Origin: a virus
DNA length: 33,642 nucleotides
Strand: one strand, 5' to 3'
IMG/VR virus record: IMGVR_UViG_3300043429_000899
Coordinates: 1-33,642 of that record
Below the pieces are notes generated by a model, which did no database searches, was not told the DNA's origin, and worked only from the letters and a program-made list of their open reading frames with translations. The stretch's first letter is position 1, and each line of letters opens with the position of its first letter. Both the position numbers and the translations under genes were made by a program. This document shows, piece by piece, positions 8,972-23,438 of the stretch.

Positions 8972-9142
8972 ATGAAAGTCTATGTTGTGTTTGAAGTTGA
9001 CTGTCATTCGATGTGGTTTCATGGAATTTACTCCACGGAAAAGCGAGCCGCGAATGCTGTCGCGAAGTTGAAACGGGAACGGTTAAAACTTTGGGGATAT
9101 GCCCCCGAATTCGAAATCAAAGAAAAGGAAATTGATGCTTAA
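8972..9142 (+). CDS. small DUF7336-like protein, 56 aa
   Basis: MKVYVVFEVD, a GIYSTEKRAANAVAKLKRE helix and a final charged strand resemble the short phage/bacterial family in which a sensor-like strand is followed by a 'YST..KA..A' helix (annotated DUF7336). The name is tentative. First gene behind the 8917 promoter; overlaps the HD hydrolase start by 8 bases. Confidence 0.6.
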   Translation: MKVYVVFEVDCHSMWFHGIYSTEKRAANAVAKLKRERLKLWGYAPEFEIKEKEIDA

Positions 9143-9653
9143 CACTAAAGTCGCCAATGCAATTGCTTATGCAGTAATCGCGCATGGCGAACAAAAACGC
9201 AAATACACTCACGAACCGTATGTTGTTCATCCGATTGCGGTTGCGGAAATGCTCAATGCTCTGAACATCGGCGCCACCGAGAATATGTTGTGTGCCGCGA
9301 TTCTTCATGATGTCATTGAAGACTGCGGTGTGACTGCGCAACAAGTCGAAGAGAAATTCGGTGCGGAAGTTGCAAAACTGGTCGTTGAGTTGACCAAAGT
9401 GACTGATGCAAAAGACGGACCTCGAAAGGTTCGCAAAGAAATCGAGCGTCAGCGCTTGAGCAAAGTCTCGCCTGAAGCACAAACTATCAAAGTTGCAGAT
9501 ATGCTTCACAATATGGAATCGATTGTTGAATACGACCCGAAATTCGCAAAGGTGTTCTTGACCGAAATGCGTGAGTTGGTCGAATCGATGAAAGAAGCGA
9601 ATCCGGTGATTGTGGAAATCGCAAACAAGAAATTAAACGAATTGGGATATTGA
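9135..9653 (+). CDS. SpoT/MESH1-like HD-domain hydrolase, candidate (p)ppGpp hydrolase
   Basis: Single HD domain, 172 aa, as in small alarmone hydrolases. The metal-site residues are all present at family spacing: H32 (in VVHPIAVAEML), H58-D59 (AAILHDVIED) and D122 (IKVADMLHN). The E62-D63 pair after HD is the ED motif used in hydrolysis by SpoT/MESH1 enzymes. Start at ATG 9135 with AAGGAA upstream; ATG 9099 would overlap the preceding gene. Inference: it removes the 3'-pyrophosphate of host (p)ppGpp (or a related nucleotide) and so blocks stringent shutdown during infection. No synthetase domain. Confident of family, less so of substrate. Confidence 0.85.
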   Translation: MLNTKVANAIAYAVIAHGEQKRKYTHEPYVVHPIAVAEMLNALNIGATENMLCAAILHDVIEDCGVTAQQVEEKFGAEVAKLVVELTKVTDAKDGPRKVRKEIERQRLSKVSPEAQTIKVADMLHNMESIVEYDPKFAKVFLTEMRELVESMKEANPVIVEIANKKLNELGY

Positions 9654-16086: not shown

Positions 16087-16442
16087 TGATTGTCTATTGT
16101 CGTGCAACGAACAAAAAGAAAAAACGCAAGGTGAAACCTGTGGCGATTCCGTCCACTGCACCGACAAGTCTTTTCGGCAAACCTGTTCGAAGCGATATCA
16201 AGATTGCAAAATTACAGAAATATCGGGCACCAGACCATTCGCACATTCCTTCTTTGGAAACGAACAGTCAATTCGTGGGTGCGCGGAACAGTATGATGGA
16301 ACCGAGCGTACTGATGAAAGAATCACCAGAGACGCAAAAGGAAATCGTGGCGAAGTCGAAACGCATTTCGATTCCGTTCAACAAGGCGGCGTATCAATAC
16401 ATAGATACACCAGAACAGGCACTTAACATAGGACGCAAATAA
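16086..16442 (+). CDS. hypothetical basic protein, 118 aa
   Basis: ATG 16086 overlaps the upstream TGA (TGATG). Lys-rich start (TNKKKKRKVKP) and a Pro/Ser-rich, probably unstructured body with a short ordered C-terminus (FNKAAYQYIDTPEQALNIGRK). The C-terminal part recurs in phage proteins of unknown role. TAATG overlap with the next gene. Confidence 0.65.
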   Translation: MIVYCRATNKKKKRKVKPVAIPSTAPTSLFGKPVRSDIKIAKLQKYRAPDHSHIPSLETNSQFVGARNSMMEPSVLMKESPETQKEIVAKSKRISIPFNKAAYQYIDTPEQALNIGRK

Positions 16443-16846
16443 TGGAAAATATGGATGGTATTCTGCTGGTTCCACTTATGGAAAAAGACGAAAACGAAAA
16501 AGTATTTGCCAGTGGTATGAGCATTGAAGGTTTCCGTGTCAAAGGTGACCATCACGAATCAATCGAACAATCCGAAGCGGGTTCTAAATATCATGTGGTG
16601 TTCTTTACACCTAAGAACGGCGAACTGGTCGAAACGGATAATTTCGAGGCAATTTTCTCCGACCCGATTACCTATGCGCGAGGTCTTGCCGGATTGAATA
16701 TGTTCGGATTCCTGTTGCGCAAAACGGCAGAAACAGAAAAGTTTCTGGAAAATCACCGCAAAAAGTTTTTGGAATACTTTATCATTAACTACAATGAAAT
16801 GAAGAAAGAAGGACTGCAAGATGCTGGAAAAACTGAAAACAGTTAA
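16442..16846 (+). CDS. hypothetical protein, 134 aa
   Basis: ATG 16442 overlaps the upstream TAA. An alpha/beta N-terminal half with paired strands (KYHVVFFTPKNGELVETDNF) is followed by a helical C-terminus. No catalytic motif visible. Overlaps the next gene by 26 bases. Confidence 0.6.
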   Translation: MENMDGILLVPLMEKDENEKVFASGMSIEGFRVKGDHHESIEQSEAGSKYHVVFFTPKNGELVETDNFEAIFSDPITYARGLAGLNMFGFLLRKTAETEKFLENHRKKFLEYFIINYNEMKKEGLQDAGKTENS

Positions 16847-17078
16847 AGAGTGGCAAGATGCACTGCGCAATCATGTTTTGAATGTGCATTTCACAAAGGC
16901 AGACGGCACCGAGCGTGCGATGATTTGTACGCTGAATCAACAGGAGATTCCTGCTGAATTGATGCCAAGTAAACCTGCAAAAGAGTCGCAAGAACTTGTT
17001 CGCGTATTCGACCTTGAAATGGAAGGTTGGCGCTCGTTCCGAATCGCCTCGGTAACAAATGTTTTTATTTGTGAATAA
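16821..17078 (+). CDS. DUF2693-like small protein, 85 aa
   Basis: The pattern VHFTKADGTERAMICTLN, then LVRVFDLEMEGWRSFRIASV, is that of the small SH3-like phage family DUF2693 (usually 80-100 aa), of unknown function. ATG 16821 has AAGG upstream within the previous gene. It is the last coding gene before the structured RNA region. Confidence 0.75.
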   Translation: MLEKLKTVKEWQDALRNHVLNVHFTKADGTERAMICTLNQQEIPAELMPSKPAKESQELVRVFDLEMEGWRSFRIASVTNVFICE

Positions 17079-17104
17079 TTACTGAATAATTACCGAAATG
17101 CGGG

Positions 17105-17133
17105 TTGACAAGTAGAAAAAAGACCTATATACT
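17105..17133 (+). promoter_or_regulatory. strong consensus promoter of the large RNA region
   Basis: TTGACA (17105-17110), 17 bases, TATACT (17128-17133). Transcription should start near 17140. No ribosome site and gene follow for over 3.5 kb, so the main product must be RNA. Confidence 0.85.
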
Positions 17134-17215
17134 TGTCCACACTGAATGATTGAGAGACCGCTGCTCCCGAAAGGTAGACTCGCAAAGAGTCCAAGGTCAC
17201 CCTTACTGTGAAAGG

Positions 17216-17240
17216 AACCGAAAAGTGCGGTTTTATTTTT
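17216..17240 (+). terminator. possible short-transcript terminator inside the RNA region
   Basis: AACCG/CGGTT (17216-17220 with 17228-17232) with loop AAAAGTG, followed by TTATTTTT. If it works as an attenuator, part of the transcript would be a 90-100 base RNA. Confidence 0.3.
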
Positions 17241-17982
17241 AGAAATGTTTCGATGAAAGTGTCGGTCTCAACACACTCACTACAAATTGGGTGATGTGAG
17301 TGTTAACCCAGTCAAGGCGCGATGAATCACTTTCTTAGAGACCATTGTACACACTTGTTTGTTGGTGTGTGCGATGAACGGTCAACAAACTTTGCATCGG
17401 CTGTGCGGGGGTTTGATGCGAGATTAAATCATTTGTATAAGGTGATTAGCCCGCACCACATTTGCCTCAATAAGAAAAAAGTTGTGATACTATAATCACA
17501 TTACCACTGATGATTCGAAGTTGCTCTTCGATGAAACATTCATTGAATGTATGGTATAGCAACAGGTGAAGCGAAAGATTCATCTGTCAGAAATAAGGTA
17601 CAGTGATGTGCTGAAAGAACAATAGCCACAAAGGTTGTTCACCATGAAAATGGTTTCACTATACAAGCCGACACGCCATGAGGCGATGCTTCAGTTTCAT
17701 GCTTCCATGGAACTAAGTTGAGAACGACTGGTGAATGAAACCTGCACAGAGCCGCTCGGTGAGTGTAGAATCTAACGGGAGTTAGATAGTTCACAATCCA
17801 ACAGTCGCAACGATGGTGAATCGGTAGTGCTTCAAGTTCGAACCTTAGCGGGCAAGGGCGGAAGTGCAACATGAGAGGTTTCGAGAGAAATCGCGAAATG
17901 TGCTTGCGAAAATGTAGTCTTAGCGGACGAAAAGCAAGAGGAAGTCGGGTAGTATTCTGTCACTCAAAAGGTAATGGAACTA

Positions 17983-18099
17983 CGAGCCTGCTCGACTTTA
18001 GTGGCGTAACTTTGTAGCCGAATGGTAAGGCAACTGTATTTGGGACAGTCGATTATTGGTTCAATTCCAATCTAAGAATCTAACGCAAAGTCAGGCTCG
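17983..18099 (+). ncRNA. tRNA-like domain embedded in the large RNA
   Basis: Closing helix CGAGCCTG/CAGGCTCG (17983-17990 with 18092-18099) stacks on ACTTTG/CAAAGT (18009-18014 with 18086-18091). Inside are a 3-bp D-like arm (18017-18019/18029-18031), a 5-bp anticodon-like arm ACTGT/ACAGT with 7-base loop ATTTGGG (18033-18049, reading TTG at positions 34-36), and a perfect T-like arm ATTGG-TTCAATT-CCAAT (18055-18071). Unlike a tRNA, 14 bases separate the T arm from the acceptor strand, and no CCA end follows. Confidence 0.6.
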
Positions 18100-18422
18100 G
18101 TAGTAAGTGAAAATGGCATAATGCTTCACATCTTCGGATGAATGAAGTCACTGCAAAACTCGCAAGGTGAAGTGGTGTTGATGGGAAACTGCAAGTATGG
18201 GGTCGAACCCTTAACTGCTCGCAAGGCAGACTGAATGAGAACCGTTGAATAGCTTACTATGACAGTGGAATCGCCACCACTTTAATCAAGGCTGCCATGT
18301 TGATGAACTAGTCTGCTGTCGAAAGATGGGGATTAGTGGATAAGTCGGGAATACTCTGCAACGAGAAATAATCCGCACGAATGCATTGACACAGAAAGGT
18401 GTAATCTCAACCTTCTATCTCT

Positions 18423-18430
18423 TATAAATA
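18423..18430 (+). promoter_or_regulatory. T4-type late promoter octamer
   Basis: TATAAATA is identical to the T4 late promoter core recognised by gp55. It lies about 60 bases before the first tRNA and could add late transcription of the array. It also falls in the loop of a 7-bp stem (18402-18408/18434-18440). Confidence 0.55.
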
Positions 18431-18446
18431 GTAGAGATTATAAAAC

Positions 18447-18476
18447 AATGTTCTTGGCACTAGACGATGGAACATT
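18447..18476 (+). other. stem-loop upstream of the tRNA array
   Basis: AATGTTC/GAACATT (7 bp) with a 16-base loop, just before the first tRNA. It may mark the 3' end of the large RNA or be a processing site; no strong T run. Confidence 0.45.
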
Positions 18477-18491
18477 ACTTTATAAACTTTC

Positions 18492-18567
18492 GCGGGATTA
18501 ACTCAGTTGGTAGAGTAGAAGTTTTCCAAACTTCCTGTCGCAGGTTCGAATCCTGTATCCCGCTCCA
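18492..18567 (+). tRNA. tRNA-Gly(TCC)
   Basis: Cloverleaf with acceptor GCGGGAT/ATCCCGC, anticodon stem GAAGT/ACTTC with loop TTTCCAA, T arm CAGG-TTCGAAT-CCTG and encoded CCA. Reads GGA. Confidence 0.93.
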
Positions 18568-18573
18568 AATCGC

Positions 18574-18649
18574 GCTGTCTTAGCTCAGTTGGTAGAGCAC
18601 CTGTTTTGTAATCAGGATGTCGTGAGTTCGATTCCCACAGACAGCACCA
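18574..18649 (+). tRNA. tRNA-Thr(TGT)
   Basis: Acceptor GCTGTCT/AGACAGC, anticodon loop TTTGTAA (one T-T mismatch at the top of the stem), standard T arm and encoded CCA. Reads ACA. Confidence 0.92.
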
Positions 18650-18654
18650 AATTT

Positions 18655-18730
18655 GGGTCCTTAGCTCATTTGGGAGAGCAGTAGCTTTGCAAGCTTCAGG
18701 TGGTCGGTTCGAACCCGACAGGATCCACCA
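18655..18730 (+). tRNA. tRNA-Ala(TGC)
   Basis: Acceptor GGGTCCT/AGGATCC with one G-T pair, anticodon loop TTTGCAA, T arm TCGG-TTCGAAC-CCGA, encoded CCA. Reads GCA. Confidence 0.9.
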
Positions 18731-18736
18731 AACAAT

Positions 18737-18819
18737 GCGACTGTGGTGGAATTGGCAGACACTCTGGATTTAGGTTCCAGTGCTTCGGCGTGAGAGTTCG
18801 ACTCTCTCCAGTCGTACCA
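18737..18819 (+). tRNA. tRNA-Leu(TAG)
   Basis: Acceptor GCGACTG/CAGTCGT, anticodon stem CTGGA/TCCAG with loop TTTAGGT, a class II variable arm (TGCTTCGGCGT) and encoded CCA. It is the only Leu tRNA here with a normal long variable arm. Confidence 0.93.
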
Positions 18820-18838
18820 TTATTTGTTATCTGACTAA

Positions 18839-18914
18839 GGGTAGTTAGCTCAATTGGCAGAGTTCTGGTCTCCAAAACCAGCGGTTGTAGGTTCGAGTCC
18901 TACACTGCCCGCCA
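18839..18914 (+). tRNA. tRNA-Trp(CCA)
   Basis: Acceptor GGGTAGT/ACTGCCC, anticodon stem CTGGT/ACCAG with loop CTCCAAA, T arm TGTAG-GTTCGAGTC-CTACA and encoded CCA. Confidence 0.93.
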
Positions 18915-19011
18915 ATAAAAATGCACCGCGGCATTCGCGAGGAGTACACGGCGTGGAGGATGGAGACAAGAACTTCATTTGAAATGGGTGCCTAACAATG
19001 CAAAATTACAA
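18915..19011 (+). other. 97-base inter-tRNA segment with partial RNA structure
   Basis: GC-rich spacer much longer than the usual 6-7 bases. GCACC/GGTGC (18923-18927 with 18987-18991) could close a domain holding the CGCG-GCATT-CGCG hairpin. No tRNA arms and no reading frame. T4 also encodes non-tRNA stable RNAs (species 1 and 2) in its tRNA cluster; this may be an analogue. Confidence 0.4.
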
Positions 19012-19088
19012 CGGGGTGTAGCTCAGTCTGGCAGAGCACTTGCTTTGGGAGCAAGATGTCCTAGGTTCGAATCCTAGTATCCCGACCA
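19012..19088 (+). tRNA. tRNA-Pro(TGG)
   Basis: Acceptor CGGGGTG/TATCCCG (two G-T pairs), anticodon stem CTTGC/GCAAG with loop TTTGGGA, T arm CTAGG-TTCGAAT-CCTAG, encoded CCA. Confidence 0.93.
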
Positions 19089-19187
19089 ATTAAAGAGAGC
19101 AGTAGCCAAGACGCGAATATTGGTGACTTTACTAAACTGCTTTTATTTCGGTAATGCACACGCGATGCGTCAACCGAACAATTTAAT
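19089..19187 (+). other. 99-base inter-tRNA segment with two stem-loops
   Basis: Stem AGCAGT/ACTGCT (19098-19103 with 19136-19141) encloses CCAA/TTGG and is followed by TTTATTT, like an intrinsic terminator. A second stem TTCGGT/ACCGAA (19147-19152 with 19173-19178) follows, and GACGC/GCGTC could join the two loops. Candidate small RNA or array-internal attenuator. Confidence 0.45.
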
Positions 19188-19262
19188 GCAGGTGTAACTC
19201 AGCGGTAGAGTTCTTCGTTGCCAACGAAGATGTCGAGAGTTCGAATCTCTTCACCTGCTCCA
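19188..19262 (+). tRNA. tRNA-Gly(GCC)
   Basis: Acceptor GCAGGTG/CACCTGC, anticodon stem CTTCG/CGAAG with loop TTGCCAA, encoded CCA. Reads GGC/GGT. Confidence 0.93.
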
Positions 19263-19269
19263 AATTTAA

Positions 19270-19344
19270 TGCGCGGTATATCAGTGGCAGATTGTCAGTC
19301 TCATAAGCTGGAGGTCGGTGGTTCGAATCCATCCTGCGCAACCA
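19270..19344 (+). tRNA. tRNA with CAT anticodon (Met; identity uncertain)
   Basis: Acceptor TGCGCGG/CTGCGCA with a weak T1-A72 first pair, loop CTCATAA, stem TCAGT/GCTGG, encoded CCA. The 3' half (GCGCAACCA) resembles initiator tRNA, but the three G-C pairs of initiator anticodon stems are absent. Confidence 0.85.
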
Positions 19345-19394
19345 ATTAAAGTAACATAAACAATTTTTTATTTTCGTTTTTCAACTCAAAGTAT

Positions 19395-19402
19395 TATAAA
19401 TA
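19395..19402 (+). promoter_or_regulatory. T4-type late promoter octamer
   Basis: TATAAATA in an AT-rich gap after the first tRNA block. It would start transcription near 19408, before a terminator at 19565. The interval 19345-19617 has no convincing gene. Confidence 0.55.
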
Positions 19403-19564
19403 AATCTATGAACACCAATTTATTCTCCTGCCAATCACGCAATCACACACGAATCATGAATTCGGTGATGGTCAGCTTTGGCTATAGAATTGATGGCGAG
19501 AAACCACAGGACTATAACGGGGTTTTAAGGTAAGAAAATCTAATACGATTTTTGGCACACTTAG

Positions 19565-19596
19565 AACCCTTGGATTAAATTCAAGGGTTTTTTATT
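19565..19596 (+). terminator. intrinsic terminator of the first tRNA block
   Basis: AACCCTTG/CAAGGGTT (19565-19572 with 19582-19589), 9-base loop, then TTTTTATTT. Ends the block that begins at 17140/18423. Confidence 0.85.
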
Positions 19597-19617
19597 TGGT
19601 AATCGTAAACAAATCGC

Positions 19618-19646
19618 TTGACAGGTAAACATAAAGTGTTTATACT
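19618..19646 (+). promoter_or_regulatory. consensus promoter for the second tRNA block
   Basis: TTGACA (19618-19623), 17 bases, TATACT (19641-19646), 20 bases after the terminator. Same hexamers as the 17105 promoter. Start near 19653. Confidence 0.8.
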
Positions 19647-19652
19647 GTTAAT

Positions 19653-19786
19653 CAATGAATAACGAAGCGCAAACAATGCTTCGTGAACACCGCGGTTGTC
19701 GAATCAGCCGCACCGCTATCCGCAATGGTAGCAATTCCCGCCGAGAGGTGGTATGAGGTTTGCTGTGTTCCTTACAAAAACACAGC
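19653..19786 (+). ncRNA. candidate small structured RNA
   Basis: Starts at the predicted start of the 19618 promoter. Hairpins: GAAGC/GCTTC; GCGG/CCGC (19692-19695 with 19708-19711); GCTATC/GGTAGC (19715-19720 with 19727-19732); and an 8-bp GCTGTGTT/AACACAGC (19762-19769 with 19779-19786) at the end. No reading frame with a ribosome site. Confidence 0.45.
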
Positions 19787-19790
19787 ACTT

Positions 19791-19880
19791 ATAATTGAAT
19801 GCATTATGCTGGTGTAACTGACGAGTTATCGCACAACTTTAGAGTTGAGAGGTTCGATTCCGAATAGTGTGTTCAATTAT
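19791..19880 (+). ncRNA. tRNA-like RNA with a 17-bp acceptor helix
   Basis: Arms 19791-19807 and 19864-19880 pair over 17 consecutive positions (three G-U). Inside are two 5-bp hairpins with 4-base loops (TAACT-GACG-AGTTA and CAACT-TTAG-AGTTG) and a T-loop-like GG-TTCGATT-CC. The order copies D, anticodon and T arms, but the loops cannot present a 7-base anticodon and no CCA follows. Confidence 0.55.
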
Positions 19881-19886
19881 GTGTAA

Positions 19887-19969
19887 GGGAAGTTAAAGCT
19901 GATGGTTTCAGCGGGCAGTCTGTAAAACTGCGCCTTCGGGGAGTGGTTCGATTCCACAACTTCTCACCA
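19887..19969 (+). tRNA. tRNA-Tyr(GTA)
   Basis: Class II tRNA: acceptor GGGAAGT/ACTTCTC, anticodon stem GCAGT/ACTGC with loop CTGTAAA, variable arm GCGCCTTCGGGG region, encoded CCA. Confidence 0.92.
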
Positions 19970-19975
19970 ATTTAT

Positions 19976-20050
19976 GCACCATTCGTCTAACGGTGAGGAC
20001 GCAAGACTTTCAATCTTGAAATAGGGGTTCGATTCCCCTATGGTGTACCA
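19976..20050 (+). tRNA. tRNA-Glu(TTC)
   Basis: Acceptor GCACCAT/ATGGTGT, anticodon stem CAAGA/TCTTG with loop CTTTCAA, T arm AGGGG-TTCGATT-CCCCT, encoded CCA. Confidence 0.93.
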
Positions 20051-20055
20051 AATTC

Positions 20056-20130
20056 GCTCTGATGGCCAAGTGGTAAGGCACTTCCTTGGTAAGGAAGAGA
20101 CCGCAAGTTCGAACCTTGCTCAGAGCACCA
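20056..20130 (+). tRNA. tRNA-Thr(GGT)
   Basis: Acceptor GCTCTGA/TCAGAGC, anticodon stem CTTCC/GGAAG with loop TTGGTAA, encoded CCA. Reads ACC/ACT. Confidence 0.93.
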
Positions 20131-20143
20131 ATTAGAGGTTTGT

Positions 20144-20293
20144 ATGACTGTAGATAAGATTCACAATCTTATGGTCTGTGAATGTAGATACTGTAAAGAA
20201 TACTGGAATACAGTATGGAAAGATTCTGTATCTCATAGAACTCTCGAAAGAAATACAGGAAAAATATTCATCTTGAAAACAATGCGCTCGTAG
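20144..20293 (+). CDS. small Cys-containing protein inside the tRNA array, 49 aa
   Basis: ATG 20144 after TAGAGG. The sequence has CECRYC followed by a basic helical part, so a small metal-binding protein is possible. It stops at TAG 20291-20293, which are bases 8-10 of the next tRNA-Arg, so the last residues (MRS) are read from the tRNA 5' strand. The 20131-20283 gap is otherwise unexplained. Confidence 0.5.
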   Translation: MTVDKIHNLMVCECRYCKEYWNTVWKDSVSHRTLERNTGKIFILKTMRS

Positions 20294-20360
20294 CTCAACT
20301 GGACAGAGCAATAGGCTACGAACTTATAGGTTGGGAGTTCAAATCTCTCCGAGCGTGCCA
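20284..20360 (+). tRNA. tRNA-Arg(ACG)
   Basis: Acceptor GCGCTCG/CGAGCGT, loop CTACGAA, T arm GGGAG-TTCAAAT-CTCTC(C), encoded CCA. Its 5' part and spacer are identical over about 34 bases to those of tRNA-Arg(TCT) at 22492. Decoding of CGU/C/A would need host A34 deamination. Confidence 0.92.
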
Positions 20361-20366
20361 AAATTT

Positions 20367-20458
20367 GGAAGAGTGCCAGAGTCCGGTTTATTGGAACAGT
20401 CTTGAAAACTGTCGGCCCCTAAAAAGGTCCGTGGGTTCAAATCCCACTTCTTCCGCCA
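20367..20458 (+). tRNA. tRNA-Ser(TGA)
   Basis: Class II: acceptor GGAAGAG/TTCTTCC, anticodon stem ACAGT/ACTGT with loop CTTGAAA, long variable arm with a CCCCTAAAAAGG hairpin, encoded CCA. Confidence 0.93.
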
Positions 20459-20464
20459 AATTAT

Positions 20465-20538
20465 TGCTTCGTAGCTCAACGGTAGAGCACACGGCTGATA
20501 ACCGTAAGACACAAGTTCGATTCTTGTCGAAGCAACCA
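20465..20538 (+). tRNA. tRNA-Ile(GAT)
   Basis: Acceptor TGCTTCG/CGAAGCA, D stem GCTC/GAGC, loop CTGATAA, T arm ACAAG-TTCGATT-CTTGT, encoded CCA. Start set at T 20465 because this gives a full 7-bp acceptor and a proper discriminator. Confidence 0.9.
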
Positions 20539-20540
20539 GT

Positions 20541-20637
20541 TTATCCAGTGCGCTTGCAAGTGCGCCAGAAGTCCGAGACGCGAAAGTGGAGTAGGCAAAC
20601 AAATGCTGGTGTAGTGGTTGGATTCCACTCTGGATAA
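20541..20637 (+). ncRNA. tRNA-like RNA with enlarged anticodon-position arm
   Basis: Ends pair perfectly (TTATCCAG/CTGGATAA, 20541-20548 with 20630-20637). A 5-bp T-like arm AGTGG-TTGGATT-CCACT (20613-20629) abuts the 3' strand exactly as in tRNA. A GCGC/GCGC arm sits in the D position and CCAG/CTGG (20565-20568 with 20606-20609) encloses a 37-base loop region. The T loop lacks TTC and there is no CCA. Confidence 0.55.
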
Positions 20638-20646
20638 TTTTACAAT

Positions 20647-20724
20647 GGTCCGTGAGTCTGCTTGGTGTGGATGCCTGCCTGTCGCGCAGGACATAGATGG
20701 GTTCGAAACCCATACGGACCGCCA
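20647..20724 (+). tRNA. tRNA-Asp(GTC)
   Basis: Acceptor GGTCCGT/ACGGACC, anticodon stem CCTGC/GCAGG with loop CTGTCGC, T arm ATGGG-TTCGAAA-CCCAT, encoded CCA. Confidence 0.93.
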
Positions 20725-20745
20725 ATTTCAACAAAGGAGATATAA

Positions 20746-21003
20746 ATGAATAAGCGTTTTGTAATTCTGGTTGTCGCGGCACTTTCTTTGACTGCTTGTA
20801 CAGATGCCGCTCGAAGCAAGCTAACTAACTATGGTTCGCCTGCGCGTGTGCAATGTTACTCTGGCGGCAAACTGATTTATGACGGCGTTTCGACAGGCAA
20901 ATTGATGGAAACGGCCGATTCAGATGGTTACAATTTGCGCGATAACAAGACGAATGACCTTGTTCAAGTAACAGGTGACTGCGTGGTCACCTATCTCGAT
21001 TAA
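20746..21003 (+). CDS. predicted lipoprotein within the tRNA array, 85 aa
   Basis: ATG 20746 after AAAGGAGA, the best ribosome site in the array. Signal MNKRF, a hydrophobic stretch and lipobox LTAC (about residues 15-18). The mature part has RVQCYSGGKLIYDGVSTGK, SDGYNLRDNKTNDLVQVTGDC and ends VVTYLD, a pattern I know from small lipoproteins of many phages and prophages, often near lysis or exclusion genes. It differs from the 1153 lipoprotein but has a similar layout. An envelope role is likely; precise function unknown. Confidence 0.8.
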   Translation: MNKRFVILVVAALSLTACTDAARSKLTNYGSPARVQCYSGGKLIYDGVSTGKLMETADSDGYNLRDNKTNDLVQVTGDCVVTYLD

Positions 21004-21009
21004 TTTTTC

Positions 21010-21086
21010 GGAACGGTAGCTCAGCTGGTAGTAGCAACAGACTTTTAATCTGAAGGTCGTGGGTTCGACTCCCACTCGTTCCACCA
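21010..21086 (+). tRNA. tRNA-Lys(TTT)
   Basis: Acceptor GGAACGG/TCGTTCC, anticodon stem CAGA/TCTG with loop CTTTTAA, T arm GTGGG-TTCGACT-CCCAC, encoded CCA. Starts 7 bases after the lipoprotein stop. Confidence 0.93.
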
Positions 21087-21092
21087 AATCAT

Positions 21093-21167
21093 GGACTATT
21101 AGCACAGCGGTAGTGCAACGGACTGTTAATCCGTCGGTCACAGGTTCGAATCCTGTATAGTCCGCCA
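21093..21167 (+). tRNA. tRNA-Asn(GTT)
   Basis: Acceptor GGACTAT/ATAGTCC, anticodon stem CGGA/TCCG with loop CTGTTAA, T arm ACAGG-TTCGAAT-CCTGT, encoded CCA. Confidence 0.93.
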
Positions 21168-21168
21168 A

Positions 21169-21328
21169 TTTGAGACAGTCGCGGCGGAGTTGCCACTCCA
21201 AAGTGACTGGTTGTATGGTGTATGGATGCACTCTGCGCCTAGTAGTCAAAGTTGACGGAATGGCAATTCCTGATGAAGTGATGAAAAGCGCGGCGGATTG
21301 GGTTCGAATCCCATTGCATTTGCTCAAA
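21169..21328 (+). ncRNA. 160-base RNA element with a T-arm-like module
   Basis: Ends pair TTTGAG/CTCAAA (21169-21174 with 21323-21328). A tRNA-like T arm TGGG-TTCGAAT-CCCA lies at 21299-21313 but 9 bases separate it from the closing strand. Other hairpins: CAGTC/GACTG enclosing GGAGT-TGCC-ACTCC, GTCAA-AG-TTGAC, and GGAAT/ATTCC. It occupies a tRNA slot in the array but cannot fold as a tRNA. Confidence 0.5.
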
Positions 21329-21336
21329 CAATTTAT

Positions 21337-21413
21337 AGGGGTGTCGCCAAGTTGGTTAAGGCACAAGACTTTGATTCTTGCAATCGTAGGTTCGAATCCT
21401 ACCACCTCTGCCA
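21337..21413 (+). tRNA. tRNA-Gln(TTG)
   Basis: Acceptor AGGGGTG/CACCTCT, anticodon loop CTTTGAT, T arm GTAGG-TTCGAAT-CCTAC, encoded CCA. Confidence 0.92.
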
Positions 21414-21419
21414 AACAAT

Positions 21420-21488
21420 GAGTAGATAGTTTCAAGTAAAATGCCAGTTCGCGACTGCGTTGTTGGTTCATGTCCAACTCTACTCACC
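21420..21488 (+). pseudogene. degenerate tRNA or tRNA-like RNA
   Basis: Acceptor GAGTAGA/TCTACTC and T arm GTTGG-TTCATGT-CCAAC are intact, but the D loop is short (CAAGTA, no GG), the anticodon arm pairs as CAGT-TCGCG-ACTG with a 5-base loop, and the 3' end is ACCT instead of ACCA. Either a decayed tRNA (CGC, Ala, if the loop opens) or a member of the array's tRNA-like RNAs. Confidence 0.55.
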
Positions 21489-21496
21489 TAAACAGT

Positions 21497-21571
21497 GGTG
21501 ATTATAGCTCAATGGTAGAGCAATGCACTGTGAATGCATCGGTTCGGGTTCGACTCCCGATATTCACCCCA
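21497..21571 (+). tRNA. tRNA-His(GTG)
   Basis: Includes the His-specific G-1 opposite C73, one mismatch in the acceptor, anticodon stem TGCA/TGCA with loop CTGTGAA, T arm TCGGG-TTCGACT-CCCGA and encoded CCA. Confidence 0.9.
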
Positions 21572-21576
21572 AACAC

Positions 21577-21653
21577 GGCTAGATAGCACAGTTGGTAGTT
21601 GCGTCTCTTTCATACGGAGAATGTCACAGGTTCGAATCCTGTTCTAGCCACCA
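21577..21653 (+). tRNA. tRNA-Met(CAT), elongator-like
   Basis: Acceptor GGCTAGA/TCTAGCC and the GTCACAGGTTCGAATCC 3' half resemble elongator tRNA-Met. Loop TTCATAC, anticodon stem TCTCT/GGAGA with a G-T pair, encoded CCA. Confidence 0.88.
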
Positions 21654-21659
21654 AACAAT

Positions 21660-21736
21660 GCGAGTGTGATGGAATCGGCATACATACCATTCTTAAACTT
21701 TGGGTTCTGAGAGTTCAAGTCTCTCCACTCGCACCA
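21660..21736 (+). tRNA. tRNA-Leu(TAA) with collapsed variable arm
   Basis: Acceptor GCGAGTG/CACTCGC and T arm GAGAG-TTCAAGT-CTCTC are sound, with Leu-type D region (TGATGGAATCGGCA). The anticodon loop CTTAAAC sits on a poor stem (two T-T mismatches), and only about 5 bases replace the long class II variable arm. CCA is encoded. Function is uncertain. Confidence 0.75.
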
Positions 21737-21744
21737 TAAATAAA

Positions 21745-21837
21745 GGAAAGTTGGACGAGTTGGATTATGTCGGCACCCTGCTAAGGTGTTATCTGTAGAA
21801 ATACGGGTCATGGGTTCGAATCCCATACTTTCCGCCA
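21745..21837 (+). tRNA. tRNA-Ser(GCT)
   Basis: Class II: acceptor GGAAAGT/ACTTTCC, anticodon stem CACC/GGTG with loop CTGCTAA, long variable arm, encoded CCA. A CATAAATA sequence just upstream is one base off the late promoter core. Confidence 0.93.
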
Positions 21838-21854
21838 AACAATTACCGCACTAT

Positions 21855-21983
21855 ATGAAAGAAAAAGATAAACTAGAACAAGAAAGTCTGGACACGACAA
21901 CGCAAGAAGTCAGTGAGGACCAATTGATTGATGAAATCGTAAAATTGACAAGTGAGATTTACGATTTGGATTACGCCAAGTAA
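21855..21983 (+). CDS. small acidic helical protein, 42 aa
   Basis: ATG 21855, with only a weak ribosome site; the TAA stop touches the first base of the next tRNA. The sequence is polar with a C-terminal helix (EDQLIDEIVKLTSEIYDLDY). It fills a gap between tRNAs and may be a real microprotein. Confidence 0.45.
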   Translation: MKEKDKLEQESLDTTTQEVSEDQLIDEIVKLTSEIYDLDYAK

Positions 21984-22058
21984 GTGCCTATAGCTTAGCG
22001 GTAGAGCAAGGGACTCATAATCCTTAGGTCCTAGGTTCGAATCCTAGTAGGCGCACCA
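21984..22058 (+). tRNA. tRNA-Ile2(CAT) candidate
   Basis: Acceptor GTGCCTA/TAGGCGC, anticodon stem AGGGA/TCCTT with loop CTCATAA. The GGGACTCATAATCC core looks like bacterial tRNA-Ile2, whose C34 must be changed to lysidine by TilS to read AUA. Encoded CCA. Confidence 0.85.
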
Positions 22059-22070
22059 ACAAGGAAATAT

Positions 22071-22385
22071 ATGTACACATATCAAGCAAAGGTTTACAAT
22101 GTTGTTGACGGTGATACCGTTGATGTATTAGTTGATTTGGGATTCAAGATATATTCCAAACAACGAATTCGTCTGGCACGTATTGACACTCCCGAGCGCG
22201 GTCAAGAGGGATACGACAAAGCCAAAGACCGACTGAAAGAGTTGGTGCTCGATAAAGATGTAGCTTTGACCACAACGAAACCCAGCAAGTGGGGATACTA
22301 CTTGGGTGAGTTGTTCATACTCAATGAGAATGTAAACAACACTATGCTGTCGGAAGGATTGGCCAGACCAACGGCGTGGCGATGA
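22071..22385 (+). CDS. staphylococcal-nuclease-like (SNase) protein, 104 aa
   Basis: ATG 22071 after AAGGAAA. An SNase/OB fold with N-terminal VVDGDT (D13, D15) and IRLARIDTPE (R34, D39, T40, E42), matching the calcium and phosphate ligands of the family. The second catalytic Arg, usually in a D/K-YGR-Y/L motif, is replaced: the region reads KWGYYLGEL. Length is close to a minimal SNase domain without a signal peptide. It may be a weak or non-catalytic nucleic-acid-binding version. Confidence 0.82.
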   Translation: MYTYQAKVYNVVDGDTVDVLVDLGFKIYSKQRIRLARIDTPERGQEGYDKAKDRLKELVLDKDVALTTTKPSKWGYYLGELFILNENVNNTMLSEGLARPTAWR

Positions 22386-22408
22386 TGGCGGCAAGAAAGA
22401 ATGATTTC

Positions 22409-22484
22409 GCTTCGGTAGCTCAGTTGGTAGAGCACTAGACTGAAAATCTAGGTGTCGCCGGTTCGATTCCGGCTCGAAGCACCA
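22409..22484 (+). tRNA. tRNA-Phe(GAA)
   Basis: Acceptor GCTTCGG/TCGAAGC, anticodon stem TAGA/TCTA with loop CTGAAAA, T arm GCCGG-TTCGATT-CCGGC, encoded CCA. Confidence 0.93.
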
Positions 22485-22491
22485 GAACAAT

Positions 22492-22568
22492 GCGCTCGTA
22501 GCTCAACTGGACAGAGCAAGGGACTTCTACTCCCTAGGTTGAGGGTTCGAATCCTTCCGGGCGCGCCA
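22492..22568 (+). tRNA. tRNA-Arg(TCT)
   Basis: Acceptor GCGCTCG/CGGGCGC, anticodon stem AGGGA/TCCCT with loop CTTCTAC, encoded CCA. The first 27 bases and upstream spacer equal those of tRNA-Arg(ACG) at 20284. Confidence 0.93.
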
Positions 22569-22575
22569 TAAATAT

Positions 22576-22649
22576 GTTGAGGTGGCCGAGTGGTTAGGCG
22601 TTGGTCTGCAAAACCAACTACATGGGTTCAATTCCCATTCTCAACTCCA
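22576..22649 (+). tRNA. tRNA-Cys(GCA)
   Basis: Acceptor GTTGAGG/TCTC AAC with one G-T, anticodon stem TTGGT/ACCAA with loop CTGCAAA, T arm ATGGG-TTCAATT-CCCAT, encoded CCA. Confidence 0.92.
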
Positions 22650-22668
22650 AAAAATCATAAGGGGAATT

Positions 22669-22899
22669 ATGATGAAGAGTATACCAGAAAGAGCAACAGA
22701 ATTACTTGAATTTCTTCATTATGAGTACCCAAGAACTGTTAGTATAATTCGACTACATTGGGGTGACCCACAGGCGCAAGTAGTGTTTGAGAACTTGCTG
22801 ACTTACAATCACGCTGAGTCGAAAGACGGATTTAGTTTTCAAGCATTTTCCGCGATAACAGAGTTACAAGAAATCCATGCTCGATTAGCTCAGCGGTAG
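22669..22899 (+). CDS. small protein terminating inside a tRNA, 76 aa
   Basis: ATGs 22669/22672 follow AAGGGG. A helical protein (PERATELLEFLHYEY, QAFSAITELQEIHA) with a middle strand. The reading frame runs 21 bases into tRNA-Val(TAC) and ends at the TAG of its D loop, so the last residues LAQR are encoded by the tRNA D arm. No family recognised. Confidence 0.6.
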   Translation: MMKSIPERATELLEFLHYEYPRTVSIIRLHWGDPQAQVVFENLLTYNHAESKDGFSFQAFSAITELQEIHARLAQR

Positions 22900-22953
22900 A
22901 GCGTCTCCTTTACACGGAGAGGGTCGGCGGTTCGAACCCGTCATCGAGCACCA
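22879..22953 (+). tRNA. tRNA-Val(TAC)
   Basis: Acceptor GCTCGAT/ATCGAGC, anticodon stem CTCC/GGAG with loop TTTACAC, encoded CCA. Its first 21 bases are also the end of the preceding gene. Confidence 0.93.
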
Positions 22954-22959
22954 ACATTT

Positions 22960-23033
22960 GCTCTCGTAGTTAAATGGTAGAACGGTTGTTTCGTAATCAA
23001 CGGATAAAGGTTCGATTCCTTTCGAGAGCACCA
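22960..23033 (+). tRNA. tRNA-Thr(CGT)
   Basis: Acceptor GCTCTCG/CGAGAGC, anticodon stem GTTGT/TCAAC with a T-T mismatch, loop TTCGTAA, encoded CCA. Third Thr tRNA, reading ACG. Confidence 0.9.
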
Positions 23034-23044
23034 AGAAGGTTATT

Positions 23045-23224
23045 ATGATAGAGGTCACAAAAGTTTTTCAGAGTCCTTGCACTCCTGCTGTCGAAGTTGA
23101 ATATAGTGTCAAGATATCTGACCCAGTAGATTTAGCAAATGTATCCGAGTTTGAAAAACAGTTAATCAAAGACCTTGAAAAGATATACACGGAGAGAATT
23201 TTTGGTTCCTTAGCTCAGCGGTAG
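23045..23224 (+). CDS. small protein terminating inside a tRNA, 59 aa
   Basis: ATG 23045 shortly after AGAAGG. Begins MIEVTKVFQSPCTPAVEVEYSV and continues as a helix (NVSEFEKQLIKDLEKIY). It ends GSLAQR, read from the first 21 bases of tRNA-Val(GAC), and stops at the D-loop TAG, exactly like the gene at 22669. Confidence 0.6.
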   Translation: MIEVTKVFQSPCTPAVEVEYSVKISDPVDLANVSEFEKQLIKDLEKIYTERIFGSLAQR

Positions 23225-23278
23225 AGCATCTCCTTGACATGGAGGAGGTCAGTAGTTCGATCCTACTAGGAACCACCA
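23204..23278 (+). tRNA. tRNA-Val(GAC)
   Basis: Acceptor GGTTCCT/AGGAACC, anticodon stem CTCC/GGAG with loop TTGACAT, T arm AGTAG-TTCGATC-CTACT, encoded CCA. Confidence 0.92.
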
Positions 23279-23287
23279 AATAAATAA

Positions 23288-23322
23288 ATGCAAGTCGAGT
23301 TTACAAAACTTCGATTTTGCAT
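23288..23322 (+). other. stem-loop between tRNA-Val and tRNA-Leu
   Basis: TGCAA...TTGCA encloses TCGAGTTT-ACA-AAAC(T)TCGA, a long stem with one bulged T, in the 84-base AT-rich gap 23279-23362. Possible processing or attenuation signal; a TAAATAAATG run precedes it. Confidence 0.45.
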
Positions 23323-23362
23323 AAAAAATTTATGTAATTATGAGAAATCATAAACCAGTTTT

Positions 23363-23438
23363 GCCCGAGTGATGGAACGGTATACGTGTCTGACTCAAAA
23401 TCAGAATTTTGTGGGTTCGAATCCCACCTTGGGCACCA
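23363..23438 (+). tRNA. tRNA-Leu(CAA) with short variable arm
   Basis: Acceptor GCCCGAG/CTTGGGC, anticodon stem TCTGA/TCAGA with loop CTCAAAA, Leu-type D region (TGATGGAACGGTA), T arm GTGGG-TTCGAAT-CCCAC, encoded CCA. The variable region is only about 5 bases, as in the Leu(TAA) gene, not the long arm normal for Leu. Confidence 0.85.

What the first reader, a model, noticed from the sequence alone, without database searches (positions are those of the whole stretch)
17105..18480. A 1.3-kb non-coding, pseudoknot-rich RNA with its own consensus promoter
There is a perfect TTGACA-N17-TATACT promoter but no gene for over 3.5 kb. The stretch has at least two classical pseudoknots (17273-17310 and 17392-17456), a 12-bp hairpin, GNRA- and UUCG-capped hairpins, a three-way junction, crossing long-range helices and four copies of CGATGAA. 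This organisation, placed before a tRNA array in a phage, matches the general description of giant phage RNAs (GOLLD, ROOL), but it is longer than typical examples and I could not align it to them by eye. It may be a new giant RNA class.
Basis: partly seen in the sequence, partly recalled or inferred. Interest (0 to 1): 0.93.

Follow-up and report, generated by a model that had tools for sequence, protein, structure and literature searches.

The report
GOLLD giant RNA with hammerhead-cut 5' end
This phage stretch is not a new class of giant RNA: it encodes GOLLD, a known RNA that assembles into hollow cages. It also has a feature I found no report of: a self-cutting hammerhead ribozyme motif placed exactly where GOLLD begins, shared with several other phages, which would trim the RNA to size.

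Summary
The 17105-18480 stretch is a real structured non-coding RNA locus, but not a new giant class. Rfam GOLLD (RF02032) matches 17940-18413 over its whole model (191.7 bits, E 9e-53). The 5' cap domain, 17552-17939, is supported by compensatory changes in two relatives.

The apparent 1.3-kb length is explained by a hammerhead ribozyme motif at 17502-17556. Its predicted cut, A17551^U17552, lies two bases before GOLLD's first helix and would release a normal GOLLD of about 860-940 nt. A covariance model built without the window finds this site and nothing else in the window (E 9e-15). The same arrangement occurs in Xanthomonas phages X1 and XacN1, Stenotrophomonas phages RAS14/CM1 and two metagenomic phages. 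At least five other GOLLD loci lack it. The window copy has a U.U mismatch beside the core, so activity needs a test.

The linker holds a tRNA-like element with a truncated acceptor and no CCA, unlike the other 30 tRNAs.

Full-text searches found no report linking hammerheads to GOLLD. Verdict: a known RNA with a new 5'-end maturation feature.

The parts
17105..17133 (+). sigma-70-type promoter TTGACA-N17-TATACT; inferred start of transcription about 17140
   Evidence: pattern scan 11/12; start site inferred, not measured
   Evidence: structure only modestly above shuffles (z -2.25), pseudoknots not above shuffles
17214..17241 (+). terminator-like hairpin with T-rich tail inside the leader (possible early termination)
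   Evidence: consensus scan; 3 found vs 1.7 expected, so weak
17483..17500 (+). hairpin directly upstream of hammerhead stem I (UGUGAU...AUCACA); overlaps a TATAAT with a poor -35
   Evidence: fold; different but pairable sequences at the same place in G051 and G065 (sequence)
17502..17556 (+). type-I hammerhead ribozyme motif. Stem I 17502-17506/17552-17556; core CUGAUGA 17507-17513; stem II 17515-17520/17526-17531; GAAA 17533-17536; stem III 17536-17541/17545-17550; U16.1 17550, H17 = A17551
   Evidence: independent covariance model hit E 9.3e-15; descriptor hit with 0 in 2 Mb of shuffled DNA; compensatory changes; minimum-energy fold is the hammerhead; U.U mismatch at 10.1/11.1
17551..17552 (+). 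predicted self-cleavage site (A17551^U17552), the inferred 5' end of GOLLD
   Evidence: position fixed by the core; not measured
17521..17525 (+). hammerhead loop II UUGCU, complementary to AGCAA 17558-17562 (possible loop-stem I tertiary contact)
   Evidence: same complement in G051, 4 bp in G065; invariant, so no covariation
17552..17939 (+). GOLLD 5' (cap) domain; first helix 17554-17559/17659-17664 shares its 5' strand with hammerhead stem I
   Evidence: 115-pair consensus with 42 compensated pairs vs 17.8 shuffled, 0/500; fold switch
17940..18413 (+). GOLLD conserved 3' domain
   Evidence: Rfam RF02032, 191.7 bits, E 9.2e-53, model 1-416
18008..18078 (+). tRNA-like element (anticodon UUG) in the GOLLD linker; acceptor positions 1-2 unpaired, no CCA
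   Evidence: ARAGORN, Rfam 45.1 bits, acceptor comparison
18414..18491 (+). 3' trailer up to tRNA-Gly; 3' end probably set by tRNA processing and trimming
   Evidence: inference from position; no hammerhead found here in the window
18492..23438 (+). array of 30 tRNA genes (at least one ORF of 85 aa, 20746-21003, lies inside)

Best explanation
The locus encodes a phage GOLLD RNA whose 5' end is made by a hammerhead ribozyme. Transcription starts near 17140 (inferred) and runs through a leader into a hammerhead at 17502-17556. The hammerhead folds first and cuts at 17551/17552 (inferred from the core). This leaves the leader with a 2',3'-cyclic phosphate and GOLLD with a 5'-OH end beginning UGGUAUAG. 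The freed 5' strand, which was half of hammerhead stem I, then pairs with 17659-17664 to form GOLLD's first helix; folding predictions show the two helices exclude each other. The 3' end is probably set by RNase P cutting before tRNA-Gly and by trimming. The mature RNA of about 860-940 nt should fold into a 5' cap domain and a 3' ring domain and assemble into the closed multimeric cage shown for GOLLD env-38. A tRNA-like element that lacks a complete acceptor would sit in the cage interior. Shown here: GOLLD identity, conserved 5' domain fold, conserved hammerhead motif at the boundary. Inferred: promoter use, cleavage, cage formation, cargo role.
For: GOLLD: RF02032 full-length hit at 191.7 bits against a 150-bit threshold. 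5' domain: 93% of cells paired and 42 of 115 pairs with compensatory changes against 17.8 in shuffles, 0/500. Hammerhead: model R1 was built only from G051 and G065 and finds one site in the window, 17500-17564, 65.6 bits, E 9.3e-15, and X1 at E 1e-4. 8 of 17 hammerhead pairs are compensated vs 3.4 shuffled. The descriptor gives 0 hits in 2 Mb of shuffled DNA. In 2.12 Mb of fetched phage DNA not chosen for hammerheads, every hit was at a GOLLD end or a tRNA junction. The same motif sits just 5' of GOLLD in X1, XacN1, RAS14, G051 and G065. A pattern taken from the GOLLD 5' start, without the ribozyme core, retrieved two contigs and both have the motif. In G051 a further hammerhead between tRNA-Gln and tRNA-His would cut exactly before the G(-1) of tRNA-His, and one lies just 3' of GOLLD. 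In the window the fold switches from hammerhead stem I to the GOLLD first helix when the downstream strand is included. Cage, domains and linker tRNAs: PMC12286853.
Against: The window and G065 have a U.U mismatch at 10.1/11.1; RAS14 and XacN1 have one or two extra U there. Such copies were screened out in PMC3088659, so activity may be low. No hammerhead here reaches an Rfam gathering score (RAGATH-1 20.7 vs 56.3 bits in the window; Hammerhead_1 26.0 vs 34 bits in G051). At least five GOLLD loci with upstream sequence (G001, G002/G006, G003, G004, G005) show no hammerhead. No expression, cleavage or assembly data exist for this phage.
Confidence: 0.8

Rival explanations
1. GOLLD with its own long 5' extension: the whole 1.3 kb from 17140 is the functional RNA, and the hammerhead is an inactive relic or only a structural element of it.
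For: U.U next to the core and sub-threshold Rfam scores. The leader has a strong promoter match and folds a little better than shuffles.
Against: The leader has no counterpart in any relative, while the hammerhead keeps its pairs through compensatory changes and sits at the exact start of GOLLD's first helix in several phages. Relatives reach about 0.9 kb without a leader.
Confidence: 0.13
2. A new giant RNA class distinct from GOLLD and ROOL.
For: The 5' half is not covered by the Rfam model, and length and leader are unusual.
Against: Full-length match to RF02032 over its threshold. The 5' domain lies in the GOLLD order and spacing and is shared with other RF02032-positive loci.
Confidence: 0.02
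3. The leader 17140-17482 is an unrelated small RNA or attenuator. It may end at the terminator-like hairpin 17214-17241, and GOLLD is then transcribed from a promoter next to the hammerhead, as the TATACT boxes of G051 and G065 suggest.
For: Terminator-like site. TATACT boxes just upstream of the hammerhead in G051 and G065 and a TATAAT at 17491-17496 in the window (sequence).
Against: The proximal -10 in the window has only a weak -35 (3/6 at 18 nt) and overlaps a conserved hairpin. The terminator count is near chance. Compatible with the best explanation for the hammerhead itself.
Confidence: 0.3

Closest known systems
GOLLD RNA (Rfam RF02032; cryo-EM of env-38, Kretsch et al. 2025, PMC12286853)
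   Same: Full-length match of the 3' domain, separate structured 5' domain of about 390 nt (420 in env-38), variable linker that can hold a tRNA, phage location beside a tRNA array, mature length about 0.9 kb.
   Different: 5' end defined by a hammerhead motif rather than an upstream tRNA or promoter; extra 340-nt leader; the linker tRNA-like element has a truncated acceptor and no CCA.
Type-I hammerhead ribozymes of prophages (Perreault et al. 2011, PMC3088659; Rfam RF00163 and RAGATH-1 RF03152)
   Same: Core CUGANGA...GAAA...UH^, three stems, possible loop II-stem I base pairing, an upstream hairpin as in RAGATH-1; proposed there to cut long phage transcripts.
   Different: Placed at the start of a giant non-coding RNA and sharing a strand with that RNA's first helix; U.U or extra U beside the core in four of the six 5'-end copies; below Rfam gathering scores.
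Theta (HDV-like) ribozymes next to phage tRNAs (Kienbeck et al. 2024, PMC10879173)
   Same: Small self-cleaving ribozymes in phage tRNA clusters, proposed to mature tRNA ends.
   Different: Different ribozyme fold; those cut at tRNA 3' ends, these at the GOLLD 5' end and, in G051, at a tRNA-His 5' end.
ROOL RNA
   Same: Phage-linked giant RNA that forms a cage.
   Different: No ROOL match in the window; GOLLD sequence and structure instead.

Membership tests
GOLLD (RF02032) | score above Rfam gathering threshold over the whole model | tested here: met
   191.7 vs 150 bits, positions 1-416 of 416
GOLLD (RF02032) | structured 5' domain of about 400 nt upstream of the conserved 3' domain | tested here: met
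   17552-17939, 42 of 115 pairs compensated, 0/500 shuffles
GOLLD (RF02032) | variable linker, sometimes with a tRNA | tested here: met
   tRNA-like insert at 18008-18078 inside the model's linker
GOLLD (RF02032) | phage genome, near tRNAs | tested here: met
   30 tRNA genes from 18492; phage genes such as PhoH and a head maturation protease-like protein; virus record
GOLLD (RF02032) | homo-oligomeric cage, induction during lysis | not testable with these tools
   needs cryo-EM, mass photometry and infection RNA data
hammerhead ribozyme (type I) | invariant core C3-U4-G5-A6-N7-G8-A9, G12-A13-A14-A15.1, U16.1, H17 | tested here: met
   17507-17513, 17533-17536, 17550, 17551
hammerhead ribozyme (type I) | three helices supported by covariation | tested here: met
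   97% of cells paired, 8 of 17 pairs compensated, 0/500 shuffles
hammerhead ribozyme (type I) | canonical pair at 10.1/11.1 | tested here: not met
   U.U in the window and G065; G-C in G051 and X1
hammerhead ribozyme (type I) | score above an Rfam hammerhead gathering threshold | tested here: not met
   window 20.7 vs 56.3 (RF03152); G051 26.0 vs 34 (RF00163)
hammerhead ribozyme (type I) | self-cleavage | not testable with these tools
   needs in vitro transcription
ROOL RNA | match to its Rfam model | tested here: not met
   no ROOL hit over the window at gathering, nor over 17050-18500 at E<=1
new giant RNA class | no match to a described family | tested here: not met
   RF02032 match

The most novel reading that the evidence does not exclude
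In a lineage of tRNA-array phages, hammerhead ribozymes act as a dedicated RNA-only processing line: they cut GOLLD out at one or both ends and set tRNA-His 5' ends. The first strand of GOLLD doubles as the ribozyme's stem I, so that cutting and cage folding are ordered, and the cage carries an acceptor-defective tRNA-like domain inside.
Probability: 0.5. Interest if true: 0.78.

Novelty: new variant of a known kind. Interest (0 to 1): 0.58.

Why it matters
GOLLD's function and natural ends are unknown. A conserved self-cutting motif at its first base would fix the 5' end, predict a 5'-OH terminus, and explain how a cage RNA is freed from long tRNA-array transcripts without host enzymes. It also gives a role to phage hammerheads, whose function is largely unexplained, and provides a simple cleavage assay to test. 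The acceptor-defective linker tRNA-like element makes the 'tRNA inside the cage' idea testable.

Tried and rejected
New class: rejected by the RF02032 match. Leader as a tmRNA or other known RNA: nothing in Rfam even at E<=10. Leader pseudoknots: not above shuffles. Leader homologues in phages or in GOLLD relatives: none. Exact 15-mer AAAGGTGTAATCTCA in viral contigs: mostly chance matches. Upstream protein 16442-16843 as a way to synteny: no relatives. PhoH relatives: their contigs, except G020, carry no GOLLD in the part held. GOLLD in 200 genomes of the class of G082 (a Sporosarcina record): none, but that search used strict filters and nothing rang in the controls, so it says nothing. Pattern from the 5' domain in bacterial genomes: three hits without GOLLD. 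A hammerhead 3' of GOLLD in the window: none. Hammerhead-pattern contigs in general (L225-L246) mostly have no tRNAs, so hammerheads are not tied to tRNA arrays as such. A first MAFFT alignment of hammerheads was misaligned and not used.

Full report
What was checked. The stretch 17105-18480 has a TTGACA-N17-TATACT promoter match, no convincing gene and a tRNA array directly after it. The window is a 33.6-kb virus record with tailed-phage genes such as PhoH, a T4-type RNase H and a head maturation protease-like protein.

It is GOLLD. A scan of the window against Rfam gives RF02032 (GOLLD) at 17940-18413 over the full model, 191.7 bits against a threshold of 150, E 9.2e-53. The same family is found in Xanthomonas phages X1 and XacN1, Stenotrophomonas phage RAS14 and several metagenomic phages, and CM1 matches the same stretch at DNA level. 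The RNA is not annotated in the public records of X1, XacN1 or RAS14. Kretsch et al. (PMC12286853) describe GOLLD as a variable 5' domain plus a conserved 3' domain, often near tRNA islands, sometimes with a tRNA in the linker, assembling into a 14-chain cage. The window fits all features that can be read from sequence.

The 5' domain. Metagenomic phage G051 (locus L250) is 79.6% identical to the window over 926 nt starting at 17500. With G065 as a third sequence, the region 17552-17945 has a 115-pair consensus in which 93% of cells pair and 42 pairs carry compensatory changes, against 17.8 in shuffles (0 of 500) and at most 6 when partners are slid.

The hammerhead. A weak Rfam hit (RAGATH-1 hammerhead, 20.7 bits) led to a motif at 17502-17556: UACCA-CUGAUGA-U-UCGAAG-UUGCU-CUUCGA-U-GAAA-CAUUC-AUU-GAAUG-U-A^UGGUA. 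A strict descriptor finds it once in the window and never in 20 shuffled windows. A relaxed one finds none in 2 Mb of shuffled sequence. A covariance model built only from the hammerheads of G051 and G065 finds exactly one match in the window, at this place, E 9.3e-15. In X1, XacN1 and RAS14 the same motif, with quite different stems II and III, stands at the same place. The fifth pair of stem I is U-A in the window, G-C in X1 and A-U in XacN1 and RAS14. Over the model alignment 8 of 17 pairs have compensatory changes against 3.4 in shuffles. G051 has a fully canonical copy (GUUCAG/CUGAAC stem II, GUC cleavage triplet).

It marks the GOLLD start. The predicted cut, 17551^17552, leaves UG before the first GOLLD helix (17554-17559 with 17659-17664). 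That helix covaries: UAUAG/CUAUA in the window, UCUAG/CUAGA in X1, UUUGA/UCAAA in XacN1 (sequences). Its 5' strand overlaps the 3' strand of hammerhead stem I. Folding 17483-17564 gives the hammerhead; adding sequence to 17670 replaces stem I with the GOLLD helix. This suggests cut first, fold the cage RNA second.

How specific is the pairing? A pattern containing only the hammerhead core and stem I retrieved 31 viral contigs, two of which carry GOLLD downstream: G051 at the usual spacing of about 390 nt, and G065 with the 5' domain starting at the cut but a 0.7-kb endonuclease-like ORF (L233 2805-3503) inserted before the 3' domain. A pattern of the GOLLD 5' start without the core retrieved the same two. 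In 2.12 Mb of fetched phage DNA not chosen for hammerheads, the descriptor fired only at GOLLD ends and tRNA junctions. It is not universal: G001, G002/G006, G003, G004 and G005 carry GOLLD without it. Upstream of GOLLD, G002 (L210) and G004 (L207) have a tRNA, and G001, G003 and G005 have neither tRNA nor hammerhead immediately upstream.

More hammerheads in the close relative. In G051 one hammerhead lies between tRNA-Gln and tRNA-His, and its cut (C927^G928 of L250) is exactly before the G(-1) of tRNA-His. Another lies just 3' of GOLLD. This supports a processing role, though the 3' copy has only three clean pairs in stem I.

The linker tRNA. The element called tRNA-Gln at 18008-18078 has two unpaired A.A at the acceptor end, a U.U inside it and no CCA. 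All 30 other tRNAs of the window have an encoded CCA and 29 have a perfect 7-bp acceptor. The linker elements of G051, L208, L211, L213 and L252 show similar acceptor defects and lack CCA (read from the sequences), while their T and anticodon stems pair. I infer a tRNA-like domain rather than a tRNA gene.

What remains weak. The window and G065 have U.U at the 10.1/11.1 position and RAS14 and XacN1 have extra U there; copies with such mispairs were screened out by Perreault et al. (PMC3088659). No copy reaches an Rfam gathering score. Promoter use, cutting and cage assembly are inferred.

Novelty. The library search for 'hammerhead' with 'GOLLD' found only a drawing-software paper, and the other searches found no report of the pair. 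The library is open-access only, so an earlier mention in a subscription paper, including the original GOLLD description, cannot be excluded. Known precedents are hammerheads in prophage transcripts (PMC3088659) and HDV-like theta ribozymes at phage tRNA 3' ends (PMC10879173), neither tied to GOLLD in the text searched.

Noticed in passing
window 18008-18078; L250 1572-1638; L208 407-478; L211 1827-1898 (-); L213 1825-1885 (-); L252 178-247: tRNA-like elements in the GOLLD linker lack a full 7-bp acceptor and CCA, with anticodons read by eye as UUG, UGU, UUU, UAG, UUA and UUU (all start with U). The 30 other tRNAs of the window encode CCA and 29 have perfect acceptors.
   Followed up: partly
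L250 848-935: Hammerhead between tRNA-Gln and tRNA-His in G051; predicted cut falls exactly before G(-1) of tRNA-His.
   Followed up: partly
L250 1984-2039: A second hammerhead just 3' of GOLLD in G051, so GOLLD there is flanked by hammerheads on both sides.
   Followed up: partly
L233 2805-3503: A 232-aa ORF with Cys-rich N-terminus, endonuclease-like by eye, inserted in a conserved hairpin at the start of the GOLLD 3' domain of G065; possibly a mobile intron or homing gene.
   Followed up: no
L204 132-552 (XacN1): Phage-encoded tmRNA (Rfam tmRNA_permuted 123 bits, tag ANANTFDYALAA) upstream of GOLLD.
   Followed up: no
window 18921-19005, 19798-19882, 20545-20640, 21170-21330, 21420-21490: Gaps in the tRNA array hold sequences with T-arm-like and acceptor-like pairings by eye, but neither ARAGORN nor Rfam scores them as tRNA even at E<=2.
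   Followed up: partly
window 19618-19646: A second TTGACA-N17-TATACT site inside the tRNA array, with the same -35 and -10 hexamers as the one at 17105.
   Followed up: no
window 17251, 17320, 17372, 17529: Four CGATGAA in 280 nt (13 in the whole + strand of the window); the last lies in the hammerhead, the other three have no explanation.
   Followed up: partly
window 9099-9653: 184-aa HD-type metal-dependent phosphohydrolase (PHROG 990), reminiscent of small alarmone hydrolases.
   Followed up: no
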